In this document: positions 4,178 through 28,317 of the stretch, piece after piece
Position numbering within the stretch: the stretch's first letter is position 1
How the letters are laid out: every line of letters begins with the position of its first letter
NCBI GenBank assembly: GCA_944391975.1
Contig: CALXVK010000009.1
Location: forward strand, 1-32,125
Length of the DNA: 32,125 nucleotides
DNA from: an uncultured Clostridia bacterium
Lineage (GTDB): Bacteria > Bacillota > Clostridia > TANB77 > CAG-508
Direction: 5' to 3'
Position numbers and translations under genes: made by a program
Notes under the pieces: generated by a model
The model's input: only the letters and a program-made list of their open reading frames with translations
Database searches by the model: none
What the model was told of the DNA's origin: nothing

Positions 4178-5449
4178 ATGAATAACAAAAGAAATTTTAA
4201 AGAACAAGAAAGAGTAAATAATATTAAAACTGCAAAAGGATCAAAAAATAAAATGACTGGAAAAAAGCCTAGAAAGTTTACTAATACAAGATTATTTAAA
4301 ATTTTAAGGATAGTTTTAATAATAGGAATTATTATAGTAATAGCAAATATTATTTCGAGTTTAATAAAAAATAGAACACCTGAAGATATTTCTCTGATAA
4401 TAGGAGAAAATAAAGTAGAATTAAAAGACAAATTATTAATTGACGAAAATGATAATATTTATATTTCAAAAGATGATGTTGCAAACTTATATGATGAAAA
4501 TATCTATTATAATGATGATGAACAAACTTTGATTACTACTTATAATAAACATGTTGCAAAATTAGTAATTGGACAAACAACAATGGAAGTTAATTCAACA
4601 CAAGTTGCAATAAAAGGAACTTTAAAATTTGAGGATAAAATGTTATATTTACCATTATTGGATTTAAAAGATGTTTATGATTTTGAATATCAATATAATA
4701 AAGATAGAAATGTTTTAATTATAGATTCTATTTCTACTGAAAAATCACAAGCTGTTGTTGTAAAAAGCACTAAAATAAAAGAAGAACCAAAAACGTTTTC
4801 AAGTTCTTTAGAAAAAATAAGTAAATCTGATGGAGCTTATGTAACTGTTTTTGGAACAGATGGAGATTATACAAAAGTAAGAACAGCAGCTGGTAATATT
4901 GGATATATAAAAACAGATAAATTAGGTGAAATAGAAATTGTAAGAGAAAATATGGAAGAAGACATATTAGATAATATAAATATTTTAAATGAATATGATA
5001 TTGTTACTTCTTATGATAATGTTTCAATAGATTCTAATTATACAAATATTGTAATACCAAATTTATTTAATATAAATGAAAATTTAGAAGTGGAAAGTGT
5101 TATAGACCTGTCAAGTGATACTTATCAAAATTATGTTTCTTGGGCAGAAGCAAATAAAATAGATATTTGTGCAGATGTAACATTAAGTGGAAGTATGAAT
5201 TCGATATGTAGTGATTATACATCAAGAACATGTTTAATTAATCTTTTATATAATCAGTTTGTTTCAAATAATATTAGCATGATTTGTATTGATTTTGATA
5301 ATATTGATGATACAGAAGGATTTTATAGATTTGTTATTGAGCTTACACCTAGATTTAAAGAAGCTGGATATAGAGTTTTAGTTAAATATAAAGATGGATT
5401 AGATAAAGAACGTTTAGAAAAAATTGTAGATTATGTAGTTGAGGAGTAA
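4178..5449 (+). CDS. Membrane-anchored SH3-domain protein with a truncated GH18-like C-terminus
   Basis: A 423-residue protein with a Lys-rich cytosolic head, a transmembrane segment (about 45-65), a copper-amine-oxidase-N-like beta region (about 70-170), an SH3-like segment (about 180-250, including YVTVFGTDGDYTKVRTAAGNIGYI) and a C-terminal portion (about 260-423) resembling the first half of a GH18 barrel. Family members with this order are clostridial wall-associated GH18 proteins. Here the active-site DxDxE strand reads as ICIDFDNI, with Asp instead of the catalytic Glu, and the barrel stops early. It is therefore likely a wall-binding, non-catalytic protein. It is first in a run with mltG: the mltG ribosome-binding site lies inside its last codons. 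Start ATG follows AAGGAG. Confidence 0.75.
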   Translation: MNNKRNFKEQERVNNIKTAKGSKNKMTGKKPRKFTNTRLFKILRIVLIIGIIIVIANIISSLIKNRTPEDISLIIGENKVELKDKLLIDENDNIYISKDDVANLYDENIYYNDDEQTLITTYNKHVAKLVIGQTTMEVNSTQVAIKGTLKFEDKMLYLPLLDLKDVYDFEYQYNKDRNVLIIDSISTEKSQAVVVKSTKIKEEPKTFSSSLEKISKSDGAYVTVFGTDGDYTKVRTAAGNIGYIKTDKLGEIEIVRENMEEDILDNINILNEYDIVTSYDNVSIDSNYTNIVIPNLFNINENLEVESVIDLSSDTYQNYVSWAEANKIDICADVTLSGSMNSICSDYTSRTCLINLLYNQFVSNNISMICIDFDNIDDTEGFYRFVIELTPRFKEAGYRVLVKYKDGLDKERLEKIVDYVVEE

Positions 5450-5453
5450 TAAA

Positions 5454-6548
5454 ATGAAAAAGTTTTTAAAAGTATTTGTGATAATTATTCTTATAATTAT
5501 AGTATTAGCAGTAATAACATTTTTTGTATTAAAAAATAAATATGAACAAAGTTTAACTGCAGTAAATTCTGAAGCAAATAGCCAAACTGTTATTGTAGAG
5601 ATTTCTCAAGGTATGTCAACAAGTGAGATTGCTGATTTACTACAGGAAAATCAAGTAATAAAAAATGCTACAATGTTTAAAGTATATATTAAATTAAATA
5701 ATGTTGGAAATTTTCAAGCAGGAAAATATGAATTTGAAAATGGTATAGATGATGTTTCAAGTGTTTGCCAAAAACTAGTAAAAGGTGATGTTTATGATGA
5801 AAGTGTTACAATAACTTTTGTTGAAGGAAAAACAATTGAAGATTATGCAGATGTAATTGCAGAAAATACAAATAATACTGCTGATGAAGTTTTAGAATTA
5901 GTTAATTCTGAAGAATATATTGATTCTTTAATTGAAAAATACTGGTTTATTACAGATGAAGTAAAAAATGAAGAAATTTACTATAGTTTAGAAGGATATA
6001 TTCTTCCAGACACATATACTTTTGAAAATGAGGATGTTACTGTAGAGGAAATATTTAATGTAATTTTTAATTATATGGATAATTATTTATCTGAATATCA
6101 AGATGAAATAGAAGAAAGCGGATATACAGTTCATGAACTTTTGAGCTTAGCATCAGTTGTGGAACAAGAAGGAAAAACAGATGAAGCTCGTCAAGGAATT
6201 GCAGGAGTATTTATAAATAGATTAAATTCTGGAATGAGTTTAGGAAGTGATGTAACTACATATTATGCCTTTGGATTAGATATGGCAACTGAAGAACTTA
6301 CAACAAGACAATTAAATACAGAAAATCCATATAATACACGAGGACCAAATATGGAAGGAAAACTACCTGTAGGACCAATTTGTAGCCCTAGTAGAAGTGC
6401 TATTTATGCTGTATTAAATCCAGAGAATACAGATTGCTATTATTTTGTTGCAGATAAAAATGGAGATGTATATTTTTCAAAAACATATGCAGAACATCAA
6501 TCAACTATAGAAGAATTAAAATCACAAGATTTGTGGTATGAATATTAA
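5454..6548 (+). CDS. mltG: Endolytic murein transglycosylase MltG (YceG-like)
   Basis: Cuts nascent glycan strands at the outer membrane face and helps to set strand length. The product is about 364 residues: a transmembrane anchor (about 8-28), a LysM-like region with the family block VEISQGMSTSEIADLLQ, then the YceG catalytic domain with SLASVVEQEG (catalytic Glu237), AGVFINRLNSGMSLGSDVTTYYAFG, YNTRGPNMEGKLPVGPICSP and the terminal YYFVADKNGDVYFSKTYAEH. Every canonical block is intact. ATG 5454 is chosen because GAGGAG at 5441-5446, overlapping the upstream gene's end, is 7 nt away; an in-frame TTG at 5439 precedes that site. Translation is probably coupled to the gene before it. Confidence 0.95.
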   Translation: MKKFLKVFVIIILIIIVLAVITFFVLKNKYEQSLTAVNSEANSQTVIVEISQGMSTSEIADLLQENQVIKNATMFKVYIKLNNVGNFQAGKYEFENGIDDVSSVCQKLVKGDVYDESVTITFVEGKTIEDYADVIAENTNNTADEVLELVNSEEYIDSLIEKYWFITDEVKNEEIYYSLEGYILPDTYTFENEDVTVEEIFNVIFNYMDNYLSEYQDEIEESGYTVHELLSLASVVEQEGKTDEARQGIAGVFINRLNSGMSLGSDVTTYYAFGLDMATEELTTRQLNTENPYNTRGPNMEGKLPVGPICSPSRSAIYAVLNPENTDCYYFVADKNGDVYFSKTYAEHQSTIEELKSQDLWYEY

Positions 6549-9567: not shown

Positions 9568-11837
9568 ATGCTTTTTAAATTTACTAAAAGTGGAGAAAAA
9601 GTTTTAGATTTAGCTAGTGATATAGCTACTTTATTAGGACATAATTATATTGGAAGTGAACATATTTTATATGGACTTTCAAAAGAAAGTGAAGGTTTAG
9701 CACATAAGGTTTTAGAGTCTCAAGGTATTTTTCCTGATTCTATTTTAAATAAAATAGAAAATATAATTCGGAAAAGGAAATACTAATTTAAATTCTCGGA
9801 AATCGGTTTTACTTTAAAATGCAAACGAATTATTGAAAACGCATATAATGAAGCATCTAATGTAGGATCAAATTTTATAAGTACAGAACATATTTTAATA
9901 GGAATTTTACAAGAATTAGATTCTATGGCTTTTAAAATAATTTTAGAATTTAATATAAATCCTGAAAAAATTTATAATGAAATTTGGAAAGCATTAAATG
10001 ATTTTCCGGGTACTAGCGGAAAAATTGAAACTAAAAATGACTCAAAGACCAAAACTTTAAATAGTTTTGGAATAGATTTAACTAAGAAAGCGTTTGATGG
10101 TGATTTAGACCCTATTATTGGAAGAAAAAAAGAAACAAATAGAATTATGGAAATTCTTTCTAGGAGAATAAAAAATAATCCATGTTTAATTGGAGAACCT
10201 GGAGTAGGAAAAACAGCAGTAGTAGAAGGATTAGCCAAAAAAATAGCTTCGGGTGAAGTTCCTGAAAGTTTAAAAAATAAGAAAATTATAGTTTTAGATA
10301 TTGCACAAATTGTTGCTGGAAGCAAATATAGAGGTGATTTTGAAGAAAGAATAAAAAAGATTTTAAATGAAGTAAAAGAATCTAAAGATATTATATTATT
10401 TATAGATGAAATTCATATTATTGTAGGAGCTGGAGCAGCAGAAGGAGCAATAGATGCAGCAAATATTCTAAAGCCATTTTTAGCAAGAGGAGAAATTCAA
10501 GTAATTGGTGCAACAACTATAAATGAGTATAGAAAATATATTGAGAAAGATAGTTCATTAGAAAGAAGATTTCAACCAATTTTATTAGATGAGCCTACAG
10601 AAGAAGAGACAGTTCAGATTTTATTAGGAATTAAAGAAAAATATGAGAAATATCATAATATAGAGATATCTTATGAATCAGTAAATGGGGCTGTAAAATT
10701 ATCTAATAGATATATAACAGATAGATTCTTACCAGATAAAGCAATAGATTTAATTGATGAAGCGTGTGTAAGAGTTAAAAAGATTAAAAGCAAACTAGAA
10801 CTTATAGATATTGAAAATGTTGTATCAGAATGGTCAGGTATTCCAGTAGCACTACATTCAAAAGAAGAAATATATAAACTCAAAAATTTAGAATTAGATA
10901 TTCATAAAAGAGTTGTAGGACAGTGTGAAGCAGTAAATTTAGTGTCTAAAACTATTAGAAGGGGAAGATTAGGTCTTTCAGAAGAAAACAGACCAATAGG
11001 ATCGTTCTTATTTTTAGGACCTACAGGTGTAGGAAAAACCGAACTCTCAAAGGCTGTTGCAGAGGTATTATTTGGAGATGAGAGAAAGTTAATCAGAGTT
11101 GATATGTCTGAATATATGCTTCCTAGTGATGCTTCAAAATTAATAGGGGCAGCTCCTCGGTTATATTGGATATGATGAAGGATCTCGGATTTATTAAAGA
11201 GGTAAGAAAAAAACCGTATTCTATAATATTATTTGACGAAATTGAAAAAGCGCATCCAGATGTAATAAATATATTATTACAACTTTTAGAAGATGGTAGA
11301 CTTACAGATAATTTTGGAAAAACTACTAATTTTAAAAATACAATAATTATTATGACATCAAATGTTGGAGGAAAATTAATTACTAATAATAAGAAATTGG
11401 GCTTTTTTAAAGAAGATTTAAAATCTGATTATGATGAATTAAGAAAAGATGTATTAAAGGAAACGAGAGAAAATTTTAGTCCAGAATTTTTGAATAGAAT
11501 AGATGAGATTGTTATATTTCAAAAATTAAATAGAATAGAATTAAAACAAATTTCTGATATATTATTAAATAAAATATCAAAAAGAATGAAAAATAAAAAC
11601 ATAGAAATTATTTTTGATAAAAATGTAAATGATTTTGTAGTTGATAAAATAGAAGATGATACATTAGGAGCAAGACCAATAAGAAGGATTATTCAAGATT
11701 GTATTCAAGATAAAATAGTAAATGAATATCTAAATGGAAACATTGTAGATGGAGATATAATAAATATTTTTGAGATGAATAAAGAAATTTGTATTAAAAA
11801 AGAAAATGAGCTTTATAAAATTAATGAATATATTTGA
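9568..11837 (+). CDS. clpC: ClpC-type AAA+ unfoldase, read through five +1 shifts at CGG, lacking the middle domain
   Basis: Hsp100 unfoldase that feeds ClpP. The DNA carries three frames, but skipping the C at 9769, 9797, 9804, 11158 and 11186 gives one protein of about 754 residues. Order: two Clp-N repeats (about 1-145), D1 with GEPGVGKTAVVEG, pore loop SKYRG and ILFIDEIH, then D2 with GPTGVGKTELSK, pore loop GYIG (created by the shift at 11158), ILFDEIEKAHP, a possible LGF ClpP-binding loop and FLNRIDE. D1 passes almost directly into D2 (LIDEACVRVKK to EWSGIPVALHSKEE); the roughly 50-residue UVR/coiled-coil middle domain of ClpC is absent, so the length is below the usual 810-850. Start ATG follows AAAGGAGG. 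No CtsR box was seen. Confidence 0.9.
9769..9772 (+). other. +1 frameshift site CGGA (ClpC, Gly68)
   Basis: CGG follows ATT in frame. Skipping the C continues into IGKGNTNLNSG, between the two Clp-N repeats. Otherwise TAA stops at 9784-9786. Confidence 0.85.
9797..9800 (+). other. +1 frameshift site CGGA (ClpC)
   Basis: CGG follows TCT in the corrected frame, nine codons after the previous site. The shift gives NSGN, matching the Gly-rich linker before the second Clp-N repeat. Confidence 0.82.
9804..9807 (+). other. +1 frameshift site CGGT (ClpC)
   Basis: CGG follows AAT, only two codons after the previous site. The shift gives NGFTLKCKRIIENA, matching the start of the second Clp-N repeat (GFTxxxKRVIExA in ClpC). 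Two shifts this close are unusual. Confidence 0.82.
11158..11161 (+). other. +1 frameshift site CGGT (ClpC D2 pore loop, Gly530)
   Basis: CGG follows CCT. The shift creates AAPGYIGYDEG, the invariant D2 pore loop (GYVGYDEGG in relatives). Otherwise the frame ends at TGA 11173-11175. Confidence 0.88.
11186..11189 (+). other. +1 frameshift site CGGA (ClpC, Gly539)
   Basis: CGG follows TCT, nine codons after the pore-loop site. The shift restores EGSGFIKEVRKKPYSIILFDE. Otherwise TAA follows two codons later. Confidence 0.88.
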
Positions 11838-12277: not shown

Positions 12278-13421
12278 ATGAAAAAATTATTTACATCAGA
12301 AAGTGTTACAGAGGGACATCCTGATAAACTTTGTGATTATATTTCAGATAGTGTTTTAGATGAATATATAAAATTAGATTCTAATGCTAGAGTTGCATGT
12401 GAAACTGTTGCTGGAAAAAACATTATATTTATAACTGGTGAAATTTCTTCAGTAGCAGAAGTAGATATAGAAAAAGTAGTAAGAAATGCAATTAAAGAAG
12501 TTGGTTTTGACAATAGTAGTACAGATATAGATTATAAAACTTGTAAAGTTATGATTAATCTTTCAAAGCAATCTCCAGATATAGCGATTCGGAGTTGATA
12601 AATCTTTTGAAGATAAAAATGGAGAAAATGTTGATTCAGAAGGTGCTGGAGATCAAGGCTTAATGTTTGGATTTGCTATAAATGAAACAGAAGATTTAAT
12701 GCCAATGCCAATATATTTAGCCCACAAATTATCTAAAAGATTAACAGATGTTAGAAAATCTGGAGAAATTAGTTATATAAGACCTGATGGAAAAGTTCAA
12801 GTAACTGTAGAATATGATAATAATAAACCTGTAAGAATTGATACAGTGGTTGTTTCAACACAACATAATCCAGACGTGGATTTAGAAATTTTAAAAATTG
12901 ATATAAAAGAAAAAGTTATTAATGCTGTTGTTCCATCAAAATTATTAGATAACAATACTAAATATTATATTAATCCAACAGGAAGATTTGTTATTGGAGG
13001 ACCATTAGGAGATAGCGGACTTACTGGTAGGAAAATAATAGTTGATACATATGGTGGATTTAGTCGCCATGGAGGAGGAGCTTTTTCAGGTAAAGACCCT
13101 AGCAAAGTTGATAGATCAGCATCATATATGGCTAGATTTATTGCCAAAAATATTGTTGCAAATGGATATGCATCAAAATGTGAAATTCAATTTTCTTATG
13201 CAATAGGAGTAGCAAAACCAGTATCTGTATATGTTGATACATTTGGAACTAATACTATCCCAGAAGAAGAGATAGTGTCAAAAGTTTTGAAAACATTTGA
13301 TTTAACTCCAACAGGAATTATAAGAACATTAGATCTTAAGAAACCAATTTATAGAAAAACTACAAATTATGGACATTTTGGTAAAAAAGACTTACCATGG
13401 GAAGGAATTATAAAATTTTAA
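12278..13421 (+). CDS. metK: S-adenosylmethionine synthetase, read through one +1 shift at CGG
   Basis: Makes S-adenosylmethionine from methionine and ATP in the cytosol. Skipping the C at 12590 joins the two frames into about 380 residues, the normal family size. Recognised blocks are [20 protein letters not shown] (N-terminal ATP/methionine site), QSPDIAIGVD across the shift, [32 protein letters not shown] and [20 protein letters not shown] (P-loop region), all intact. Without the shift the frame ends at TGA 12596-12598 after about 106 residues, removing most of the active site of an essential enzyme. Start ATG follows AGGAGG. It has its own promoter. Confidence 0.95.
12590..12593 (+). other. 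+1 frameshift site CGGA (MetK, Gly105)
   Basis: CGG follows ATT in frame. Reading C-GGA as glycine gives SPDIAIGVD, nearly universal in MetK. The unshifted frame reaches TGA two codons after the CGG. Confidence 0.92.
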
Positions 13422-15541: not shown

Positions 15542-18500
15542 ATGAACGAATTACCAGAAAAACAAAGTGTTTTTTCAAAAATACGTAATAAAATTATAGA
15601 TGCTGGATTAAAAAATAAATTTACAAGAAGTATTATAGCAAATATAGCACCAAATATATTTGGATATAATTTAACTGATTATGTTCTAAGTAATGATGAT
15701 TCAGAACTAAGTCAAACAATGGAACTTCTTTCATCAATGAACGAAAGAGCTGTTAAAGCTAATATTTCACAAATTCTTAGAACAGTTAAAAGAAAGATAA
15801 AAACTAATAGTGATAATAATGATTTAAATACTGACAAATTAATAAATATGATACTTGATTCAGTGACAGAAAAAGCTTCTGAGTTTGTGATTTTTAGAAT
15901 ATTAAGAGAACCTTATTTTATAGATGATTCATTTTCTGATGAAACGTGTAAAAGAGTATCTGATTTAATTGATTGTTCAAATAAGACTTCATCAGAAATA
16001 AAGCAAATGTTTGAAACAATTGAATCAATAAGAGCAAATAAATATGATCATATTATCGAGATAAGTTATAATTTATTTGAAAGTTTGACATTAGAACAAA
16101 GGAAAGAGCATTTTTCTCAAATAATACCAATAGTGTCAGAGTTTATACCAACGTTTTCAGATTCGTATTTTAATAAGGACAATCCACTTGTTTTATTATT
16201 TAGTGAATTTCCAGAAGAAGATAAATTAGAACAATATAAAAAGATTTTGGAAATGTATAAAACAAAAGATAATAAAGGAATAAAAAAATTAGAGAGTCTT
16301 TCTATATGTTTTAATATGTTATCAGAAGAAGAAAGACAAAGTACTTTAGATGAAACATTTGAACAAATAAGAAATAGCGATAAAGAGAATGAAAAATTAA
16401 ATAATGCAATAAGAGTTATTAGTAACATTCCAGCTCAAGCACAAGAAAAATATTATAAAGAAGTTTTAGGCTATAATATACAATATTTATATCAACTTAA
16501 TATGTATATTTCAATCTTAGATAAGTCTTTACGAAAACAAATTCTTTTTGATGTAATAAATAAAGCAAGACAAATAACTCAGATTTCTAATAATTATAAT
16601 AATAATGATATGCTAGAAATTATAGATAATTTTGAGTCTGATATAAGTAGTGCATTTGTGACGATTTTAAATGGAGATGTAGATAATCCAAATGCTAAAT
16701 TTATTCTTTATTTATTAAACCAAGAAGGAATAATTGAGAATATAGAAAAAGAAATTACAAATCAACAAGGTATTGAATACAGTCAAATTATTGCTTTTCA
16801 GCAAAAAGGTTATAATATAGATGGATTAGCTATATTATACACAAATTTAGAATGTAATAGAATATTAAATAACTGTATGGAGAATCCAAATCAAAAACAA
16901 TATAAAGAGTCAATAAAAGAAATCTCTGAAGTAGCGAAAGATATAGAGCTTTCAGATGATAAATTATATTTGTATTATGGTAATAATAAAAAATATGAAA
17001 TTATTTTGGAGAAAAAATTAGATACATATATACAATTATTGTCTAATATTAAATCTGAAGAAAGAAAAGAACTTTTTTCAGATATTTTAACTGAGATGGA
17101 AAGGATTCCAAATATCAATATTGAAATTTTTAGAAAAAAAGCAAATGAACTTTTTGGATTGTTGGAAAAAGAAGCACAGATTTCACAATTTCCAGTTTTT
17201 ATAAATTGGATGATGAAAAATTTTGCATACAAAAGAGATGTTTCTAAATCAATAGAAAAATTAATTGAAAGTATTGATTCAGAAACAATGAGTTTGATTT
17301 ATTCAAAATATATAGAGATGTTTAATAAAGGTGGAAAAGAAAATTATTTAAATGCAAGATCTGTATTGGTTTCAGATAAATTTTTAGATGGTTTAAATAA
17401 AAAACTGTCTAAAGAAGATTGTACTTTATTAACAGAAAAAGAATTAGAAAATATTTTAAGCAATAAATATTCTATGTCAGATATTCCACATGAATATTAT
17501 AATATTGTTAAAATTTTTGCTATTTCAAGAGTAGAAAAAATAAAAAATAAATATAATAATCTGGATGAAAATGAAAAAAAACAAAATGTGGATTTGGTTT
17601 TAGCTGAATTATCTAAAGAAATTGGAGTTATTGCAAAATTTGATGGTTATTATGATATAATAAGCCAATTACATGTAAATGCAATTAATGAAATTTTTGT
17701 TTCTTTTGATAATGAAGAAAAATCAAAACACTTTGATGTATTATTTAAATCGTTTGATGAAAATATAAAAAATGAAGACATAAGAAATAAATCTTTTATT
17801 ACTTTTTTTGAACAGTTAGATAATGATACGCAAATAGAGATTTTTAAACATTGTACATCTTTATCATTTGAAAACTTAAAATACGCTGCGGAAATATTAA
17901 GTAATTTCTCGATTAAAGAATTAAATAAAATATTTAAAGGTAAAATTACTTTAGATGAAGAAATCATTTCTAAATTGATGGAACTAAAAGATTCTATAAC
18001 AATAAAAACATTATTATTTGATAAAGATATTGATAGAGAAAAACTAATCGATTTATCTTCATATGATCAACTACAAACTAATATAATAAACATAGATTCT
18101 ATAATACAAAGTTTATATTTAAATAATAAAGGAGCTGATAAAGAGAAATTTAATCAATTATTAGATGATACTTATAATCTGTTTACATATAATAATATTC
18201 CTGAGTTTATGAAGAATTTTAGAATGTTTCAATTGGGAAATTTTTATCATAAAGAAAATAGTAAATTACAATCGTTTCAAGGTAAATCTTTTGAAGAAAG
18301 AGATGCATTAATTTTAGAAGATTTATTTAAAATTGCATTAGATTCTAATAGTGAATCTTTGAGAGATTTTCTTAATATAATTATTGAAGGAAATAAATTA
18401 ACAAATCTTCTTCAAGAAAATCCAGAAGAACAAATAAAATCATTTTCAGTAGAAGAATTAGCATTATTAAATCAATATAGAGATACTTTAATTGATTTTC

Positions 18501-20470
18501 ATAATTTTATAAAAGAAATAAAAAAAACTGATAAACCTAAGATTGAAAAAACTGATGATATTATTAAAGATTTAAGAACATTAAGTTATATTTATTCTAG
18601 CAATCAAGATAATATTTTTGATACTGATAAGATAATTAATGAGTTATTTAAAGGTTTTATTACAATAGAAATTACTCCAGAGAAATTACTTGAATACATG
18701 GATAACAAAAAAGCAGAATCTGATGCTAGACATTTAGAAATAGAAAAAAAACTAAGAGAAGGCACTTTACATTTAGAAGAAGGAGACTTTATTAAAGGAA
18801 TAAAATATTTTGATAGTTATATTTCAAGTATGATGCATGATGGTATAAAAGGAGGAGAATTTAATAAAGAACATTCTCATTCAGATGCAACACCATTAGA
18901 TTTAGATTTTGGATATATTTCAAAGGAAAATTTAAAAAAAGAAAAGGCAACTGATTATGAAATAATATGTACTACTATTAGTGAAGCATATGGATCTAAT
19001 TATATAGTTTTAAAGCAATATGCTGATAGATTGCATGCCAAATCAAGCGAAAAAATTTTTGGGGAAGAAATATTTACAAGTTTTTCAGACTATTATGGAT
19101 TAGGTTCAGGTGAAAATTCAACTAATAACTCTAGATATATTAGAACAGGCATACCAATAACAGATGTTGATTATATTGTAAGTGAAGCATGGAATTTTAA
19201 AAATGGATATGAAATGGCTATGGCTGGAATATATATACCTGTTATAAATACAAAAGGAGAAATAGTATTTTCATCAGAAGATTATAAGAAAATTCGTGAA
19301 GAAATGAGAGGATTATCTCATTATCATGCAGATAATATACAGGTAAGCCAAGAAGCAAGAAATGTTGAAGCATTATATTCAATTTATAAAAGTGTTAGTA
19401 TTAAAGATATAGAAGAAATTGATAAAGAAATAGAAACAGTGAATAGATTAGTTGAAGGAAATCCAGATACTGTTACTGAAGAAAAGAAAAAAGCAATTAT
19501 AAAACTTATAAAAGATTATTTTAATACTCAAGGAATAAAAGTTAGTGACGATTTGAGTCAAAATTTATCTTCAACATCAATTGAATTGATAGATACAGGT
19601 TCAACAGGAAGAGCTACAAATGTACCAGGAGATGGTGATTTTGATTTTATGCTTAGACATAATTTACCATCTGATGAATTGGTAAAATTTTCTGAATATG
19701 TTAAACAATTAAAGCATTCAAGTTTTACAGAAGTTGTAGATGGATTTAGAGCAAAAGATGTTACTCTTCCAACAGGAGAAGTTGTTGATTTAGATATTAC
19801 TACTGCAAAGAAGAGCTTAGAACTAAGTTATTCGAGTGATATGTGTGTACGTGATAGATTAAATAATATTAAGGAAAATAATCCGGAAAGTTATAATTAT
19901 GTAAAAGCAAATATTATTATGGCAAAAAAAATATTGAAAGCAAAAGGAATTTACAAAAAAATAGGTAGTAATGGAGCAACTGAATATGGAGGATTTGGAG
20001 GAATTGGAGTTGAAAATTGGATCCTTCAAAATGGTGGTTCATTTAAAAAGGCTATAGATACTTTCTTAGAAGTTGCTAATCAAGTTAGCTCTTATGAAGA
20101 ATTTAAGGAAAAATACCCTATTTTTGATTTTGGATTTAATCATAGAGAAGGAAAAACAAGTCATGATTGTTTTAGTTCTTTTTTGGCAAGTAATATAAAT
20201 AATCCAGATAAGGGATTTGAATATGTAAAAAAAGAATTAACTGAAATTCAAAAAGCTTTAGAATTAGAAATAGAAAAACAAGATCTGGAAACACCATTAT
20301 TAAAAAGTATTTCTACTGAAGGTCTTATTGAAGCTAGTAAAAAGAAAAGTATATTGAGAAATAAATTTAGCTATTCTAAAATACGTAGTATGATGGCGAA
20401 ATATATGTCAGTTAAAGAAAGTTCTAAAGTTCAACTTAATGAGACTCAAACTTGTTTGGAGGGAAATTAA
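15542..20470 (+). CDS. Giant 1642-residue protein with helical repeats and a CCA/OAS-like nucleotidyltransferase domain
   Basis: I recognise no named family for the whole protein. Residues 1 to about 1070 are predicted almost entirely helical, Glu/Asn/Ile/Leu-rich and repeat-like, with no signal peptide or membrane segment. About 1080-1270 is a globular region with clusters such as FNKEHSHSDATPLDLDFGYI and YIRTGIPITDVDYIVSEAW. From about 1340 the sequence shows a polymerase-beta-type nucleotidyltransferase signature: GSTGRATNVPGDGDFDFM (Gly1353-Ser1354, acidic pair Asp1366 and Asp1368) and a third acidic site VDLDIT (Asp1416/Asp1418). A later GGFGGIGVENWILQ block (from 1483) resembles the tail of archaeal class I CCA-adding enzymes. 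It has a strong AAGGAG site and heads a short operon. No shift sites interrupt it. The function is unknown; nucleotidyl transfer to RNA or a small-molecule product is inference. Confidence 0.7.
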   Translation: MNELPEKQSVFSKIRNKIIDAGLKNKFTRSIIANIAPNIFGYNLTDYVLSNDDSELSQTMELLSSMNERAVKANISQILRTVKRKIKTNSDNNDLNTDKLINMILDSVTEKASEFVIFRILREPYFIDDSFSDETCKRVSDLIDCSNKTSSEIKQMFETIESIRANKYDHIIEISYNLFESLTLEQRKEHFSQIIPIVSEFIPTFSDSYFNKDNPLVLLFSEFPEEDKLEQYKKILEMYKTKDNKGIKKLESLSICFNMLSEEERQSTLDETFEQIRNSDKENEKLNNAIRVISNIPAQAQEKYYKEVLGYNIQYLYQLNMYISILDKSLRKQILFDVINKARQITQISNNYNNNDMLEIIDNFESDISSAFVTILNGDVDNPNAKFILYLLNQEGIIENIEKEITNQQGIEYSQIIAFQQKGYNIDGLAILYTNLECNRILNNCMENPNQKQYKESIKEISEVAKDIELSDDKLYLYYGNNKKYEIILEKKLDTYIQLLSNIKSEERKELFSDILTEMERIPNINIEIFRKKANELFGLLEKEAQISQFPVFINWMMKNFAYKRDVSKSIEKLIESIDSETMSLIYSKYIEMFNKGGKENYLNARSVLVSDKFLDGLNKKLSKEDCTLLTEKELENILSNKYSMSDIPHEYYNIVKIFAISRVEKIKNKYNNLDENEKKQNVDLVLAELSKEIGVIAKFDGYYDIISQLHVNAINEIFVSFDNEEKSKHFDVLFKSFDENIKNEDIRNKSFITFFEQLDNDTQIEIFKHCTSLSFENLKYAAEILSNFSIKELNKIFKGKITLDEEIISKLMELKDSITIKTLLFDKDIDREKLIDLSSYDQLQTNIINIDSIIQSLYLNNKGADKEKFNQLLDDTYNLFTYNNIPEFMKNFRMFQLGNFYHKENSKLQSFQGKSFEERDALILEDLFKIALDSNSESLRDFLNIIIEGNKLTNLLQENPEEQIKSFSVEELALLNQYRDTLIDFHNFIKEIKKTDKPKIEKTDDIIKDLRTLSYIYSSNQDNIFDTDKIINELFKGFITIEITPEKLLEYMDNKKAESDARHLEIEKKLREGTLHLEEGDFIKGIKYFDSYISSMMHDGIKGGEFNKEHSHSDATPLDLDFGYISKENLKKEKATDYEIICTTISEAYGSNYIVLKQYADRLHAKSSEKIFGEEIFTSFSDYYGLGSGENSTNNSRYIRTGIPITDVDYIVSEAWNFKNGYEMAMAGIYIPVINTKGEIVFSSEDYKKIREEMRGLSHYHADNIQVSQEARNVEALYSIYKSVSIKDIEEIDKEIETVNRLVEGNPDTVTEEKKKAIIKLIKDYFNTQGIKVSDDLSQNLSSTSIELIDTGSTGRATNVPGDGDFDFMLRHNLPSDELVKFSEYVKQLKHSSFTEVVDGFRAKDVTLPTGEVVDLDITTAKKSLELSYSSDMCVRDRLNNIKENNPESYNYVKANIIMAKKILKAKGIYKKIGSNGATEYGGFGGIGVENWILQNGGSFKKAIDTFLEVANQVSSYEEFKEKYPIFDFGFNHREGKTSHDCFSSFLASNINNPDKGFEYVKKELTEIQKALELEIEKQDLETPLLKSISTEGLIEASKKKSILRNKFSYSKIRSMMAKYMSVKESSKVQLNETQTCLEGN

Positions 20471-20471
20471 A

Positions 20472-20813
20472 ATGATTAGTGAAAAAAATTATGAAAGAAT
20501 GGCAACAGAAGTATTAGAAATTATAAATTTATATCCAAAAGACACAAAAGAAAAAATACCAAAAAGACTTATTGCAGAACTTGAAAAACATAGATTGCCA
20601 AATTTAAATGTTAAATTAAATAAAAATAAAAAAGTATACGAACAAGATATATGTGATGAGTCATTAGTATTTATATATATGATTTATAGAGATTATATTG
20701 CAGGACCAAAAGAAAAAGCTTATTTTGATAATATATTGAATCAATTTGATGAAGAAATTAGAATGCAATATAATCTAGATAATTTATTTAAAATTAAAGA
20801 AGAAAAAAAGTAG
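20472..20813 (+). CDS. Small protein, paralogue of the 21382-21849 product
   Basis: A 113-residue soluble protein of unknown function. It shares an order of features with the 21382-21849 product: YxEVLEII near the N-terminus, a PK...EKIP block, a charged middle, a DE-SLVFIYMIYRDY hydrophobic helix, then A-GPKEKA. ATG 20472 is chosen because GGAGGG at 20458-20463 precedes it; an in-frame ATG at 20439 lies inside the giant gene. It starts 1 nt after the stop of the giant gene, so translation is coupled. Confidence 0.75.
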   Translation: MISEKNYERMATEVLEIINLYPKDTKEKIPKRLIAELEKHRLPNLNVKLNKNKKVYEQDICDESLVFIYMIYRDYIAGPKEKAYFDNILNQFDEEIRMQYNLDNLFKIKEEKK

Positions 20814-20996: not shown

Positions 20997-21401
20997 ATGG
21001 AAGAGGATAAAGAGAAAAAAACATTGAAGGATAAGGCTAAAAGTGGTGCATATTCTGTTGCAAAAGATGTAAAAGAAAAAATTAAAAATTTTGCTAAAAG
21101 AGCAAAAGAAAATTATCAGCAAATAACTGGAGTTCCACGTGATGATCAAGAAAAAAGAGGAAGAGAAACTTTACAAGATAAAATAGAGAGGTTTAATGAA
21201 ATACAGTTTGAAAATACATTGAGAATGGGTGGCTTTAGTGATGAAGCTATTAAAAATATAGAACAAAAAATTCAATCTGTTGGTACACGTATTATGGATG
21301 CTTTTGATAAAATATTTGATAAAATCGCTGATAGATGGAATGAATATATAAAACAATCTGAAGAGAAGAAGGAAGAAAGAGATGGAGAAGGTAAAGTATA
21401 A
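20997..21401 (+). CDS. Small helical charged protein of unknown function
   Basis: A 134-residue, Lys/Glu-rich, predicted all-helical protein with no signal peptide or membrane segment. The start is ATG with AAGGAG 6 nt upstream. The C-terminus is an acidic/basic low-complexity tail (EEKKEERDGEGKV). It overlaps the next gene by 20 nt in another frame, an arrangement that suggests coupled expression and perhaps a complex. I recognise no family. Confidence 0.65.
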   Translation: MEEDKEKKTLKDKAKSGAYSVAKDVKEKIKNFAKRAKENYQQITGVPRDDQEKRGRETLQDKIERFNEIQFENTLRMGGFSDEAIKNIEQKIQSVGTRIMDAFDKIFDKIADRWNEYIKQSEEKKEERDGEGKV

Positions 21402-21849
21402 TTGGGAGTGTGCATATAAAGAAATTTATGAAATATTAAAAATATTTCCAAAGGAATTAGTTGAAAAAATTCCAGCATCTAAAATAGATTATATAAAGAA
21501 AAATATGGATAAAGGTTATGAATATAATGTTACAGTAGAAACATTTGATGGAAAGACAATGCTAGATGAGACTGCAGCAATATTAGCAGTTTTATTTAAA
21601 AATTATTGGGCAACACCAAAACAAAGAGAACAAATGGAAAAATATCATAATATGCAAAGATTAAAATTGGATCAAGAAGCTAGAGAAAAATATGATCCAG
21701 AAAAGATATTTAAAAGAGAAAATGAATTTATTGACTCTAATGATAATAAAAAAGATAAAATTAAAGAGCAAGAAATATCTATGGTAAAAAAAGAAGAATC
21801 TTTTTTTAAGAAAATATTAAATAAGATTAAATCTTTCTTTTATAAATAA
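21382..21849 (+). CDS. Small protein, paralogue of the 20472-20813 product, with amphipathic tail
   Basis: A 155-residue protein. Residues 8-95 align by eye with the 20472-20813 product: YKEIYEILKIFPKELVEKIP, then a DETAAILAVLFKNYWATPKQRE helix. After a charged spacer it ends in FFKKILNKIKSFFYK, a basic amphipathic helix that could bind the membrane. Translation starts inside the end of the preceding gene. Proteins of this shape are frequent but uncharacterised in gut Firmicutes as far as I know. The function is unknown. Confidence 0.7.
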   Translation: MEKVKYNWECAYKEIYEILKIFPKELVEKIPASKIDYIKKNMDKGYEYNVTVETFDGKTMLDETAAILAVLFKNYWATPKQREQMEKYHNMQRLKLDQEAREKYDPEKIFKRENEFIDSNDNKKDKIKEQEISMVKKEESFFKKILNKIKSFFYK

Positions 21850-25807: not shown

Positions 25808-26625
25808 ATGCAAGAATTAATTAATTTAATGAATTATACTTTTATGCAAAGAGCTTTGATTTGTGGTATAGCAATATCTTTTTGTGCAGCATTGATAGGT
25901 GTAATATTGGTTTTAAAAAATTATTCTATGATAGGTCATGGACTAGGAGAAGTTGCTTTTGCTGCTTTAAGTTTAGCTATGTGCTTAGGACTTCCAGAAC
26001 TTGCAGTTTCAATTCCTATAGTAATAATTGCTGCAATTATTATAATGATTATAAGTCAGAAAAAAGGAGAAAGTGGAGATGTAACTATTGCTCTTGTTGC
26101 TTCACGGAGCTTTAGCGTTTGGTGTTATTATAACAGCTTTAAATTCACGGATTTGGAACAGATAGTTTAAATTATATGTTCGGAAGTATACTTGCTATGA
26201 CTACTTCTGATGTAATATTAAGTGTTATTTTATCTATAGTTTTAATTATAATATATTTTATTTTTTATAATAGATTATTACTTATTTCGTTTGATGAAAA
26301 ATTTGCTAAATCCTCTGGAATTAGTGTTACTTTTTATCAATTTTTAATTGCTTTAATTACAGCATTTGTTGTTGTTCTTGGAATGAGAATGATGGGAACT
26401 TTACTTATTTCAAGTTTAATTGTTTTACCTGCTGTAATTTCTAAAAGATTAACAAATAGTTTTAAAGATTTAGCATGTGTATCAGTAATAACATCAATTA
26501 TTTGCTTTATACTTGGAGTTTTAGTATCTTTTTATTTAAATCTTCCAGCAGGAGCTGCAATAGTAGCAGTTTATATTATACTTTTATTTATAGTAAATAT
26601 AGTTACTAAATTTATTAAAATATAA
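25808..26625 (+). CDS. znuB: Zn/Mn ABC importer permease (ZnuB family), read through two +1 shifts at CGG
   Basis: Multi-spanning permease of the importer. Skipping the C at 26105 and 26148 joins three frames into about 271 residues with eight or nine hydrophobic segments, the normal family size. Landmarks are MQRALICGIAISFCAALIGV, LVLKNYSMIGHGLGEVAFAA (family block around the first loop), ALVASGALAFGVIITALNSG across both shifts, LNYMFGSILA and MRMMGTLLISSLIVLPAV (the conserved transmembrane motif near the C-terminus). Without the shifts the product stops at TAA 26168-26170 or TAG 26163-26165, losing more than half the protein. It is the last gene of the importer operon, followed by a terminator. 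Confidence 0.92.
26105..26108 (+). other. +1 frameshift site CGGA (ZnuB, Gly100)
   Basis: CGG follows TCA in frame. The shift gives VASGALAFGV, a conserved membrane segment. Unshifted, about 20 foreign residues precede TAA. Confidence 0.88.
26148..26151 (+). other. +1 frameshift site CGGA (ZnuB, Gly114)
   Basis: CGG follows TCA in the corrected frame, fourteen codons after the previous site. The shift gives ALNSGFGTDSLNYMFGS. Unshifted, TAG follows four codons after the CGG. Confidence 0.88.
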
Positions 26626-26722: not shown

Positions 26723-26769
26723 TTGTGCATAATAAATTTGGAAAAATACGTATAGAAAAGAGTAGTAAA

Positions 26770-28317
26770 ATGGAAGAACTAAAGAATTTTGAATTAAATA
26801 ATAAAATTTTAGAAGATTTTGATAAAATAATGAGCTATCATTTGGATAAAGTTGAAAACTTGATTATAAAAGAAGTTTTCACAAATCCAAAATTATTTAA
26901 TATAATAAGTTTGTGTACAAAGCTTAAATCTCTTACTATAGAAGGAGATCTAAGAGTTGATGTAAATAAGATAATATTTAATATATGCAAGCCAGAATTA
27001 TTAGAGACTCTTATTCTTAATTCAGTAAAACTTCCAACAACAAAAGCTTTTGCAAAATTTACAAGTCTTACAACACTTTCATTAACTAATGTTACTTTTA
27101 GTGATGTAAATGGTTTTTTTAATAAAATTACTAATAAAGAAAAAATTATTGCTATTAATTTAAGTAATGTTGATTTAGGAAGAAAATCTATAAGCATTTG
27201 TGGTATGTTTCCAAATTTAAAATATTTAAATATAGATGGACTAAAAAATTGCAAATTTGATAATTTTGTATTTTTAGCTGAAAGCAACAAAATAGAAAGA
27301 TTAGATTTTTTTGGAAATGAAATAAGTTTTGATGCATTAAAAGATTTGAGTAGAAAAAAGTATACCAAAAATATAGATGTAAAGTTAAAGACATCAAAAA
27401 AGTCATTAATTGATAATAGATTTGAAATAAGTGATGAAAATGAAATATCTCTTACAATTAATTCTTTTGATTTCGAAAAAGCTACTTCATATCTACCATT
27501 AAGTAAAATTCAAAATTTATTTTTGGTTATAGAAGATAAATTTAAGATAGATGAGTATATCAGAAAATTAAGAAAAGTAAAAGGCAAAGTTAGTATAAGC
27601 ATAAAAAATGTATCATATTTAGAAACTGGTACAGCAAAAGATTTACAAGATAAATTAGAATTAGAAAATATTGGAATTTTAGATTATGAAAAATCCAAAA
27701 TAAAAATGTATTCAATAAATGATTATATAGAAATTAGAGAAAAGTTTGATGAAATTATTGAAAAACTTTCAAAATATTCTAATGATATAGAATTATTTGA
27801 AGAATTATATAATTATATAAAAGAAAATATTAGATTTGATAATGAAAATGAAAGTAATATAAAAACATTTTATATAGAAAAATATTCAGGACAAAATTTA
27901 TATGCAATTATAATTGAAGATATTTTAAAAACTTTAAAAATACATTCTCATATTATTTCAGGAATTAGTTATAATGAACCAAATTGCATATGGAATCAAG
28001 TTGAACTTGCAGGAGATTGGTATAATGTGGATATTGCAAGTGATATAAAATTCAAATTAAATAAAAAAATATGGCAAAGTGGTTCTAAGGGAATTTTACA
28101 AGATGATGAGGAGTTTTCAAAAAATCATATTGAACAATCTGGAAATCCAGAAGCTTGTGAAACTAAAATAAGTCAAAAGAAAAAAGAAATAAAAAATAAT
28201 AATAAAAAAGTTAGCCCTTTTAATAAATTTGTAAATAAATTAAAAAATGTTTTTAAATTCAATAAAAATACGGCTTTACCAGAACCAGGTAATACTACAA
28301 AAGATAAAGAAGATTAG
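26770..28317 (+). CDS. LRR-like protein with a degenerate transglutaminase-like domain
   Basis: About 515 residues, with no signal peptide. The first 200 residues contain leucine-rich-repeat-like units (LCTKLKSLTIEGDL, KFTSLTTLSLTNVTF, MFPNLKYLNIDGL, SNKIERLDFFGNEISF). Residues about 350-440 resemble a bacterial transglutaminase-like domain (LYNYIKENIRF, then GQNLYAIIIEDILKTLKIHS, IWNQVELAGDWYNVDIASD). The Cys normally found at the GxC-x-G helix is absent (GQN) and the His of HAWN is replaced (CIWNQV), so it is probably non-catalytic. The C-terminus is a basic amphipathic segment. ATG 26770 is chosen from the promoter position; the ribosome-binding site is weak. It is first in a run with the peptidase, hpt and uvrC genes. 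Confidence 0.65.
   Translation: MEELKNFELNNKILEDFDKIMSYHLDKVENLIIKEVFTNPKLFNIISLCTKLKSLTIEGDLRVDVNKIIFNICKPELLETLILNSVKLPTTKAFAKFTSLTTLSLTNVTFSDVNGFFNKITNKEKIIAINLSNVDLGRKSISICGMFPNLKYLNIDGLKNCKFDNFVFLAESNKIERLDFFGNEISFDALKDLSRKKYTKNIDVKLKTSKKSLIDNRFEISDENEISLTINSFDFEKATSYLPLSKIQNLFLVIEDKFKIDEYIRKLRKVKGKVSISIKNVSYLETGTAKDLQDKLELENIGILDYEKSKIKMYSINDYIEIREKFDEIIEKLSKYSNDIELFEELYNYIKENIRFDNENESNIKTFYIEKYSGQNLYAIIIEDILKTLKIHSHIISGISYNEPNCIWNQVELAGDWYNVDIASDIKFKLNKKIWQSGSKGILQDDEEFSKNHIEQSGNPEACETKISQKKKEIKNNNKKVSPFNKFVNKLKNVFKFNKNTALPEPGNTTKDKED

What the first reader, a model, noticed from the sequence alone, without database searches (positions are those of the whole stretch)
15542..20470. 1642-residue protein ending in an archaeal-CCA/OAS-like nucleotidyltransferase
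A long helical-repeat body is joined to a nucleotidyltransferase core with GS, DFD and VDLD motifs and a GGFGGIG tail block like that of class I CCA-adding enzymes, which are normally archaeal. A further globular region (about 1080-1270) matches nothing I know. Size, fusion and operon with small unknown proteins could fit an immune, RNA-modifying or toxin-like system.
Basis: partly seen in the sequence, partly recalled or inferred. Interest (0 to 1): 0.62.

Follow-up and report, generated by a model that had tools for sequence, protein, structure and literature searches.

The report
Solenoid–ART–nucleotidyltransferase fusion in gut bacteria
A giant accessory protein of gut bacteria joins a fast-changing helical front end to two enzyme-like parts, one resembling ADP-ribosyltransferases and one resembling tRNA-tailing or immune-signal nucleotidyltransferases; it looks like a weapon or immune effector that no database family used here describes.

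Summary
The ORF at 15542-20470 is intact (1642 aa). Its C-terminus is a Pol-beta-type nucleotidyltransferase (NTase): AlphaFold model pLDDT 81; VIA Z 13-15 against poly(A) polymerases, archaeal class I CCA enzymes and CD-NTases; the acidic triad D1366/D1368/D1418 is invariant in 16 aligned relatives. The "unknown" globular region (about 1078-1262) is by predicted fold ADP-ribosyltransferase (ART)-like: all 36 listed PDB matches with Z>=2 are ARTs, best DarT (6.9) and Tpt1/KptA (6.2), though scores are modest. Neck, ART-like and NTase parts stay together across 78 loci from gut MAGs (Clostridia, Bacilli, a few Saccharibacteria); none in phage, plasmid or viral collections. The N-terminus is hypervariable. 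In the window the gene lies in a 6.6-kb insertion that a sister genome lacks. In Clostridia a small helical gene follows it; that family also follows about 30 unrelated, often effector-like genes, so it is a generic partner, not dedicated immunity. Most likely: an accessory conflict (defence or effector) protein with an active NTase, probably acting on RNA/tRNA ends or nucleotides. Not a CCA enzyme; CD-NTase kinship is open, without CBASS context. Function is untested.

The parts
15542..20470 (+). Large protein (1642 aa): variable helical N-terminus + helical neck + ART-like domain + NTase
15542..18121 (+). Variable N-terminal region (residues 1-860); 35-41% identical to its nearest full-length relative against 61-64% for the C-terminal module; no sequence repeat here, short repeats in some relatives
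18122..18751 (+). Conserved helical neck (residues 861-1070)
18773..19327 (+). ART-like domain (residues about 1078-1262); invariant G1081 D1082 D1115 T1117 P1118 D1120 D1122, K/R/H at 1085, near-invariant R1201 T1202
   Evidence: AF2 model of 231 aa, pLDDT 79.5; Foldseek/VIA; columns
19328..20290 (+). Nucleotidyltransferase region (residues about 1263-1583)
19598..19645 (+). GSTGR...GDGDFD active-site block (residues 1353-1368; predicted metal-binding D1366, D1368)
19793..19795 (+). Third catalytic Asp, D1418 (VDLD)
19988..20047 (+). GGFGGIGVENWILQNGGSF block (residues about 1483-1502), counterpart by position of the Gly-rich block of class I CCA enzymes
   Evidence: the CCA counterpart rests on general knowledge plus the structural match
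20472..20813 (+). Small partner 1 (ORF listed from 20439; likely ATG at 20472, one base after the stop of the large gene)
20997..21401 (+). 134-aa gene, the upstream mate of small partner 2
21382..21849 (+). Small partner 2, same family as partner 1 (26% identical), cationic amphipathic C-terminal segment
15379..22021 (.). Inserted segment absent from the sister genome G024 (L174), where the pseudouridine synthase gene and the infC promoter region are neighbours

Best explanation
It is an accessory biological-conflict protein (defence or effector/toxin). A rapidly evolving helical N-terminal region positions or senses a partner; a helical neck and an ART-like domain precede an active Pol-beta-type nucleotidyltransferase. 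The NTase transfers NMP from NTP, most probably onto an RNA or tRNA 3' end as CCA enzymes and MenT toxins do, alternatively making a nucleotide signal as CD-NTases do. The ART-like domain binds NAD or a nucleic-acid end next to it. Damage to translation or to nucleotide pools would then stop growth of an infected or targeted cell. In Clostridia the gene is followed at one base by a small helical protein with a cationic amphipathic tail, which probably tethers it to a membrane or serves as a generic adaptor. Shown by computation: ORF, predicted folds, conserved triad, conserved module, accessory insertion, generic small partner. Inferred: substrate, ART activity, membrane tethering, conflict role.
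For: NTase fold Z 13-15 to PAP/CCA/CD-NTase enzymes with an invariant triad. All 36 listed fold matches of the middle domain are ARTs, nearest DarT and Tpt1/KptA, both acting on nucleic acids. Neck, ART-like and NTase profiles hit together across Clostridia, Bacilli and Saccharibacteria. Module under purifying selection (L060/L061 dN 0.09, dS 0.46) while the N-terminus diverges (35% against 61-64% identity). Sparse: 6 of 53 genomes of the genus. Precise insertion against an empty site. Some copies lie beside integrase/excisionase-like genes (L015, L049, L050; by reading). Several copies are frame-broken (L016, L048, L049/L050, second copy in L047). The small partner family follows many unrelated genes: 62 of 67 same strand, 52 within 60 bp, 33 homology clusters. 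In L090 and L101 the module sits in giant proteins that also hold a PF03496 ADP-ribosyltransferase exoenzyme domain. NTase toxins that extend tRNA acceptor ends are established (MenT, PMC10435456, PMC11541572).
Against: No activity, substrate or phenotype is known. Catalytic residues of the H-Y-E or R-S-E type were not recognised among the conserved columns of the ART-like domain, and its fold scores are modest (Z<7). The frame breaks could be assembly errors. Known defence genes were not seen beside it, and the flanks in the window are housekeeping genes. The window genome has no EssC-type T7SS ATPase over cut-off, so secretion by that route is not supported here.
Confidence: 0.5

Rival explanations
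1. Intracellular immune receptor that works like a CD-NTase: the variable helical front senses an invader, the NTase makes an (oligo)nucleotide signal, and the small amphipathic protein or the ART-like domain is the effector.
For: CD-NTase fold matches Z about 13 and comparable size; PADLOC 'Cyclase' models match 16 of 25 relatives at up to 2e-5 over the active-site stretch; variable N-terminus, sparse insertion; small partner with cationic amphipathic tail.
Against: The window protein itself has no PADLOC hit. No CBASS effector pair: Bacilli copies stand alone and the small partner follows many genes that are not NTases.
Confidence: 0.22
2. Delivered toxin or effector (interbacterial, or acting on host cells) whose toxic part is the ART-like + NTase module.
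For: Giant variants L129, L101, L090: L129 has WXG100-like small genes upstream and L101/L090 a PF03496 domain; L084 has WXG-type genes upstream; partners of the small family read as effector-like enzymes.
Against: The window genome lacks EssC over cut-off, and the 6 genus members with EssC are not those with the gene. Most Bacilli copies have no secretion gene nearby. No dedicated immunity gene.
Confidence: 0.25
3. RNA-repair enzyme: a Tpt1/KptA-like ART removes or modifies terminal phosphates and the CCA-like NTase rebuilds 3' ends of tRNAs cut by anticodon nucleases.
For: Tpt1/KptA fold match together with class I CCA match in one chain; RNA repair with 2'-phosphotransferases and NTases is known in phages (PMC9503650; PMC7824862).
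Against: No ligase, kinase or phosphatase gene seen beside it; very variable N-terminus; sparse distribution.
Confidence: 0.1
4. Replacement of the missing housekeeping CCA-adding enzyme.
For: The window genome and 49 of 52 genomes of the genus show no PF01743 class II enzyme.
Against: The loss is genus-wide, whereas only 6 of 53 genomes have this gene; the one own-genome tRNA inspected encodes CCA.
Confidence: 0.03

Closest known systems
Archaeal class I CCA-adding enzyme (e.g. PDB 3ovb, 1r89, 2dvi)
   Same: NTase and neck fold (Z 13.3-13.9, 222-226 residues aligned, 18-21% identity); GS/DxD/D triad; a Gly-rich GGFGG...GGSF block in the corresponding region
   Different: No PF09249 match, no body/tail tRNA-binding domains, extra ART-like and helical regions, bacterial and accessory
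CD-NTases (CdnD/CdnB/CdnE; CBASS, cGAS, OAS relatives)
   Same: Fold Z about 12.7-13.1, similar domain size, weak PADLOC Cyclase profile matches
   Different: No CBASS effector operon; fused behind an ART-like domain and a long variable helical region
DarT / Tpt1-KptA ADP-ribosyltransferase group
   Same: Predicted fold of residues 1078-1262 (Z 6.9 and 6.2)
   Different: Own conserved set (D1082, K1085, DxTPLDxD, R1201), at most about 15% identity, no DarG-like macrodomain partner seen
MenT nucleotidyltransferase toxins
   Same: Pol-beta-type NTase, here proposed to act on tRNA 3' ends as MenT does (PMC10435456, PMC11541572)
   Different: No dedicated antitoxin; different size and architecture; the likeness is functional and inferred
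Polymorphic/polyvalent conflict proteins (PMC3482391, PMC5512222)
   Same: ART and Pol-beta NTase domains occur among their effector domains
   Different: The fixed neck-ART-NTase triplet with a variable helical front end was not found described in the papers searched

Membership tests
Pol-beta nucleotidyltransferase superfamily | GS + DxD + third acidic residue on the NTase fold | tested here: met
   Invariant columns, fold match Z up to 14.9
Class I CCA-adding enzyme | PF09249 domain after the NTase core | tested here: not met
   No match in the window genome at E<=0.01; control search rings in four archaea
Class I CCA-adding enzyme | Body and tail tRNA-binding domains (CCA residues after about 252) | tested here: not met
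   VIA alignments end at CCA residue 252, near window residue 1577, and only about 65 residues remain
Class I CCA-adding enzyme | CCA addition to tRNA | not testable with these tools
   -
CD-NTase (CBASS) | CD-NTase fold and triad | tested here: met
CD-NTase (CBASS) | Match to CD-NTase profile models | tested here: inconclusive
   PDLC00776 in 16 of 25 relatives, best 2.1e-5, active-site stretch only, none for the window protein
CD-NTase (CBASS) | Operon with a cyclic-nucleotide-activated effector | tested here: not met
   Bacilli copies stand alone; the Clostridia partner also follows unrelated genes
CD-NTase (CBASS) | Cyclic oligonucleotide synthesis | not testable with these tools
   -
ADP-ribosyltransferase superfamily | ART fold | tested here: met
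   All 36 listed matches with Z>=2 are ARTs, best 6.9 over 118 residues at 3.2 A; predicted model, modest Z
ADP-ribosyltransferase superfamily | H-Y-E, R-S-E or Tpt1-type catalytic residues | tested here: inconclusive
   Different conserved polar set; no structure-based residue mapping was possible
T7SS-secreted toxin | EssC-type secretion ATPase in the host genome | tested here: not met
   Window genome has only a partial match, 113.6 bits against cut-off 778.4; genome 95.6% complete
Toxin-antitoxin / toxin-immunity pair | Small neighbour specific to this toxin | tested here: not met
   The small family follows genes of 33 homology clusters; Bacilli copies have none

The most novel reading that the evidence does not exclude
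A new polymorphic conflict system of gut Clostridia: one small helical protein with a membrane-active tail is the fixed hub for dozens of interchangeable enzymes (ART-like, NTase, peptidase-like, LRR and others), of which the solenoid-ART-NTase protein is the largest and one that also spread to Bacilli and Saccharibacteria. Its two enzyme parts act together on one RNA or nucleotide substrate.
Probability: 0.25. Interest if true: 0.85.

Novelty: new variant of a known kind. Interest (0 to 1): 0.62.

Why it matters
It would add a widespread family of gut bacteria to the short list of proteins that couple ADP-ribosyltransferase-like and nucleotidyltransferase domains, place a tRNA-tailing/immune-signalling type of NTase in a new architecture, and open a previously unannotated set of effector-like gene pairs to direct testing.

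Tried and rejected
Pfam, NCBIfam and PADLOC on the window protein gave nothing above cut-off; the DUF5517 and 4lid matches over residues 1254-1296 were dropped as below cut-off. PDB sequence profiles of the module and of the middle domain found no relative. No match in phages or plasmids and none among viral contigs. CCA replacement rejected by distribution. Dedicated antitoxin/immunity role of the small gene rejected. T7SS delivery in the window host not supported. The viral-structure search with the middle domain gave only weak, mostly unnamed proteins. No Rfam family, no tRNA in the window. Repeats in the segment are chance-level two-copy families apart from small1/small2 homology. Literature searches found no description of the triplet, but only open-licence papers are held.

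Full report
OBSERVATION. The window is one contig (C9) of a 1.66-Mb, 136-contig genome assembly. The ORF 15542-20470 gives 1642 residues without a stop. Pfam, NCBIfam and PADLOC name nothing in it above cut-off.

RELATIVES. Searches found matches in 7 of 96 related genomes, 6 of 53 in the genus, 21 of 390 in the family, 11 of 385 in the order and 2 of 391 in the class sample; each count includes the window genome. A scan of genome contigs with the NTase alignment gave 110 relatives, of which 78 loci were kept, mostly rabbit, ruminant and other gut MAGs labelled Clostridia or Bacilli, and four Saccharibacteria. Viral contigs, phages and plasmids gave none. A module tree puts the Clostridia rows in two main groups apart from the Bacilli, with three Saccharibacteria rows nested beside a Bacilli row (SH-aLRT support only). 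Contamination of single MAG contigs cannot be excluded, but two of the Saccharibacteria contigs exceed 200 kb.

ARCHITECTURE. Profiles for neck, middle domain and NTase hit together in the loci whose sequence is long enough, in one frame or split by a frame break in a few Clostridia copies. The alignment of the module is A4; 16 NTase sequences share invariant GSTGR, D-F-D, third Asp, and GG-G--G-E-W-LQN-GS. AlphaFold2 of residues 850-1642 gave pLDDT 81, pTM 0.80. VIA aligned model residues about 403-738 to poly(A) polymerases (Z 14-15), archaeal CCA enzymes (Z 13.3-13.9, 18-21% identity), terminal uridylyltransferases and CD-NTases (Z about 13); Foldseek ranks an archaeal CCA enzyme first, E 4.8e-4. 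Rows within one Z unit are ties, so the fold does not decide between CCA-like and CD-NTase-like.

MIDDLE DOMAIN. A separate model from 75 sequences (A6) reached pLDDT 79.5. Foldseek scores are weak (best E 0.069, DarT1) but the top three are DarT, Tpt1 and DarT. VIA then listed 36 entries with Z>=2, all ART-fold proteins, led by Thermus DarT (Z 6.9, 118 residues, 3.2 A) and yeast Tpt1 (Z 6.2, 100 residues, 3.4 A). Z below 8 alone may mean a common arrangement; the uniformity of the list is what persuades me. Among the columns invariant in 75 of 75 sequences are G1081, D1082, D1115, T1117, P1118, D1120 and D1122; K, R or H stands at 1085, and R1201 in 73 of 75, so this is not a decaying domain. 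I could not map these on ART catalytic residues with the tools available.

N-TERMINUS. Against its nearest full-length relative (L061) the first 580 residues are 35% identical, the module 61-64%. dN is about 0.6 against 0.25-0.28 in the module; synonymous sites are near saturation, so ratios are rough. A closer pair (L060/L061) has dN 0.09 and dS 0.46 in the module, hence purifying selection. Eight of 14 relatives tested carry repeats of several unrelated kinds, mostly of 29 or 31 aa; the window protein, L061, L015, L018, L059 and L047 show none.

CONTEXT. In the sister genome G024 (L174; infC 96.6%, rluA-type gene 82.6% identical) the pseudouridine synthase gene is followed directly by infC, whereas the window has about 6.6 kb between the matching flanks (15378 and 22022), ending just at the infC promoter-like TTGACA. 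The segment holds the large gene, small partner 1, a 134-aa gene and small partner 2. L059 has a distant relative of the pair also upstream of infC, with another left flank. L015, L049 and L050 lie near genes that read as integrase/excisionase (not profile-tested).

SMALL PARTNER. The family occurs in 25 of 26 related genomes, up to 15 copies each, nine in the window genome. Of 67 distinct genes, 62 have a same-strand upstream neighbour, 52 within 60 bp or overlapping; these neighbours fall into 33 homology clusters, of which the large-protein family is the biggest (18). Some single-member clusters are plainly housekeeping neighbours at larger gaps, so the number of true partners is somewhat lower. 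One profile-named partner is GH10 (3e-27) and one LRR_5 (4e-15); LicD-like, transglutaminase-like and metallopeptidase-like are weak; ART-like, JAB-like and amidoligase-like are my reading of the sequences. The C-terminal 26 residues are amphipathic and cationic (mean moment 0.55 against 0.36 shuffled; net charge about +4; 40% individually below p 0.05). The loci were chosen by homology, so sampling is not random. Bacilli copies have no such neighbour and stand between housekeeping genes.

GIANT VARIANTS. In L101 (4335 aa, contig-cut) and L090 (3021 aa, contig-cut) the module is followed by a PF03496 ADP-ribosyltransferase exoenzyme domain; in L129 it sits in a >3000-aa protein behind small WXG-like genes (by reading). 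The window genome has no EssC over cut-off; six of 31 genus members tested do, none of them among the six carriers.

MECHANISM. Shown by computation: intact gene, NTase and ART-like predicted folds, conserved triad, conserved module, accessory insertion, generic partner. Inferred: that the NTase is active (about 0.8), acts on RNA/tRNA ends (about 0.5) rather than making a nucleotide signal (about 0.3), that the ART-like part uses NAD (about 0.45), that the role is conflict (about 0.75).

COMPARISON. It is a member of the Pol-beta NTase superfamily and by predicted fold of the ART superfamily. It is not a class I CCA-adding enzyme (two defining features not met). CD-NTase kinship is open; CBASS context is not met. 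It may work like MenT (PMC10435456, PMC11541572) or DarT, but is a member of neither by any test run here.

LIMITS. Folds are predictions; the nearest kin of the middle domain within ARTs is uncertain; MAGs contain errors (three housekeeping genes in the window are frame-split); no experiment exists.

Noticed in passing
window 20472-20813 and 21382-21849; loci L216-L233: A small helical protein family (up to 15 copies per genome in the genus) follows many unrelated genes, several effector-like: a possible generic partner of a polymorphic system.
   Followed up: partly
whole genus (52 genomes): 49 of 52 genomes, the window's included, show no class II CCA-adding enzyme (PF01743), though controls ring; the one own-genome tRNA inspected (L221 5314-5396, minus) encodes CCA.
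   Followed up: partly
window 9925-11175 / 11166-11837; L174 3757-5364 / 5352-6038: A clpC-like gene is split into two overlapping frames at the same place in the window and in the sister genome.
   Followed up: no
window 12278-12598 / 12663-13421 and 25808-26170 / 26176-26625: metK and a znuB-like permease are frame-split in the window; metK is intact in the sister (L174 6518-7660). Possibly assembly errors.
   Followed up: partly
window 26725-28317: 530-aa protein that reads as leucine-rich repeat plus transglutaminase-like with a cationic amphipathic segment near its end; a relative lies in L184 9058-10698.
   Followed up: no
L101 1-13005, L090 2-9064, L129 1879-10929: Giant proteins embedding the neck-ART-NTase module; two also hold a PF03496 domain, and L129 has WXG-like small genes upstream.
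   Followed up: partly
L048 76-888, L061 5919-6605, L224 3872-4675: A 230-270-aa family starting ECFHFT....SI...GL, which reads as another ART-like protein, recurs near these loci.
   Followed up: no
L049 8805-10145 (copy in L050): The C-terminal part behind the NTase carries an extra stretch of about 200 residues, and the gene is frame-split in two genomes with near-identical elements.
   Followed up: no
L181 2250-2843, L182 1711-2301, L185 9980-10582: Genes related to the small family sit upstream of infC without the large gene: this spot may be an insertion hotspot.
   Followed up: partly
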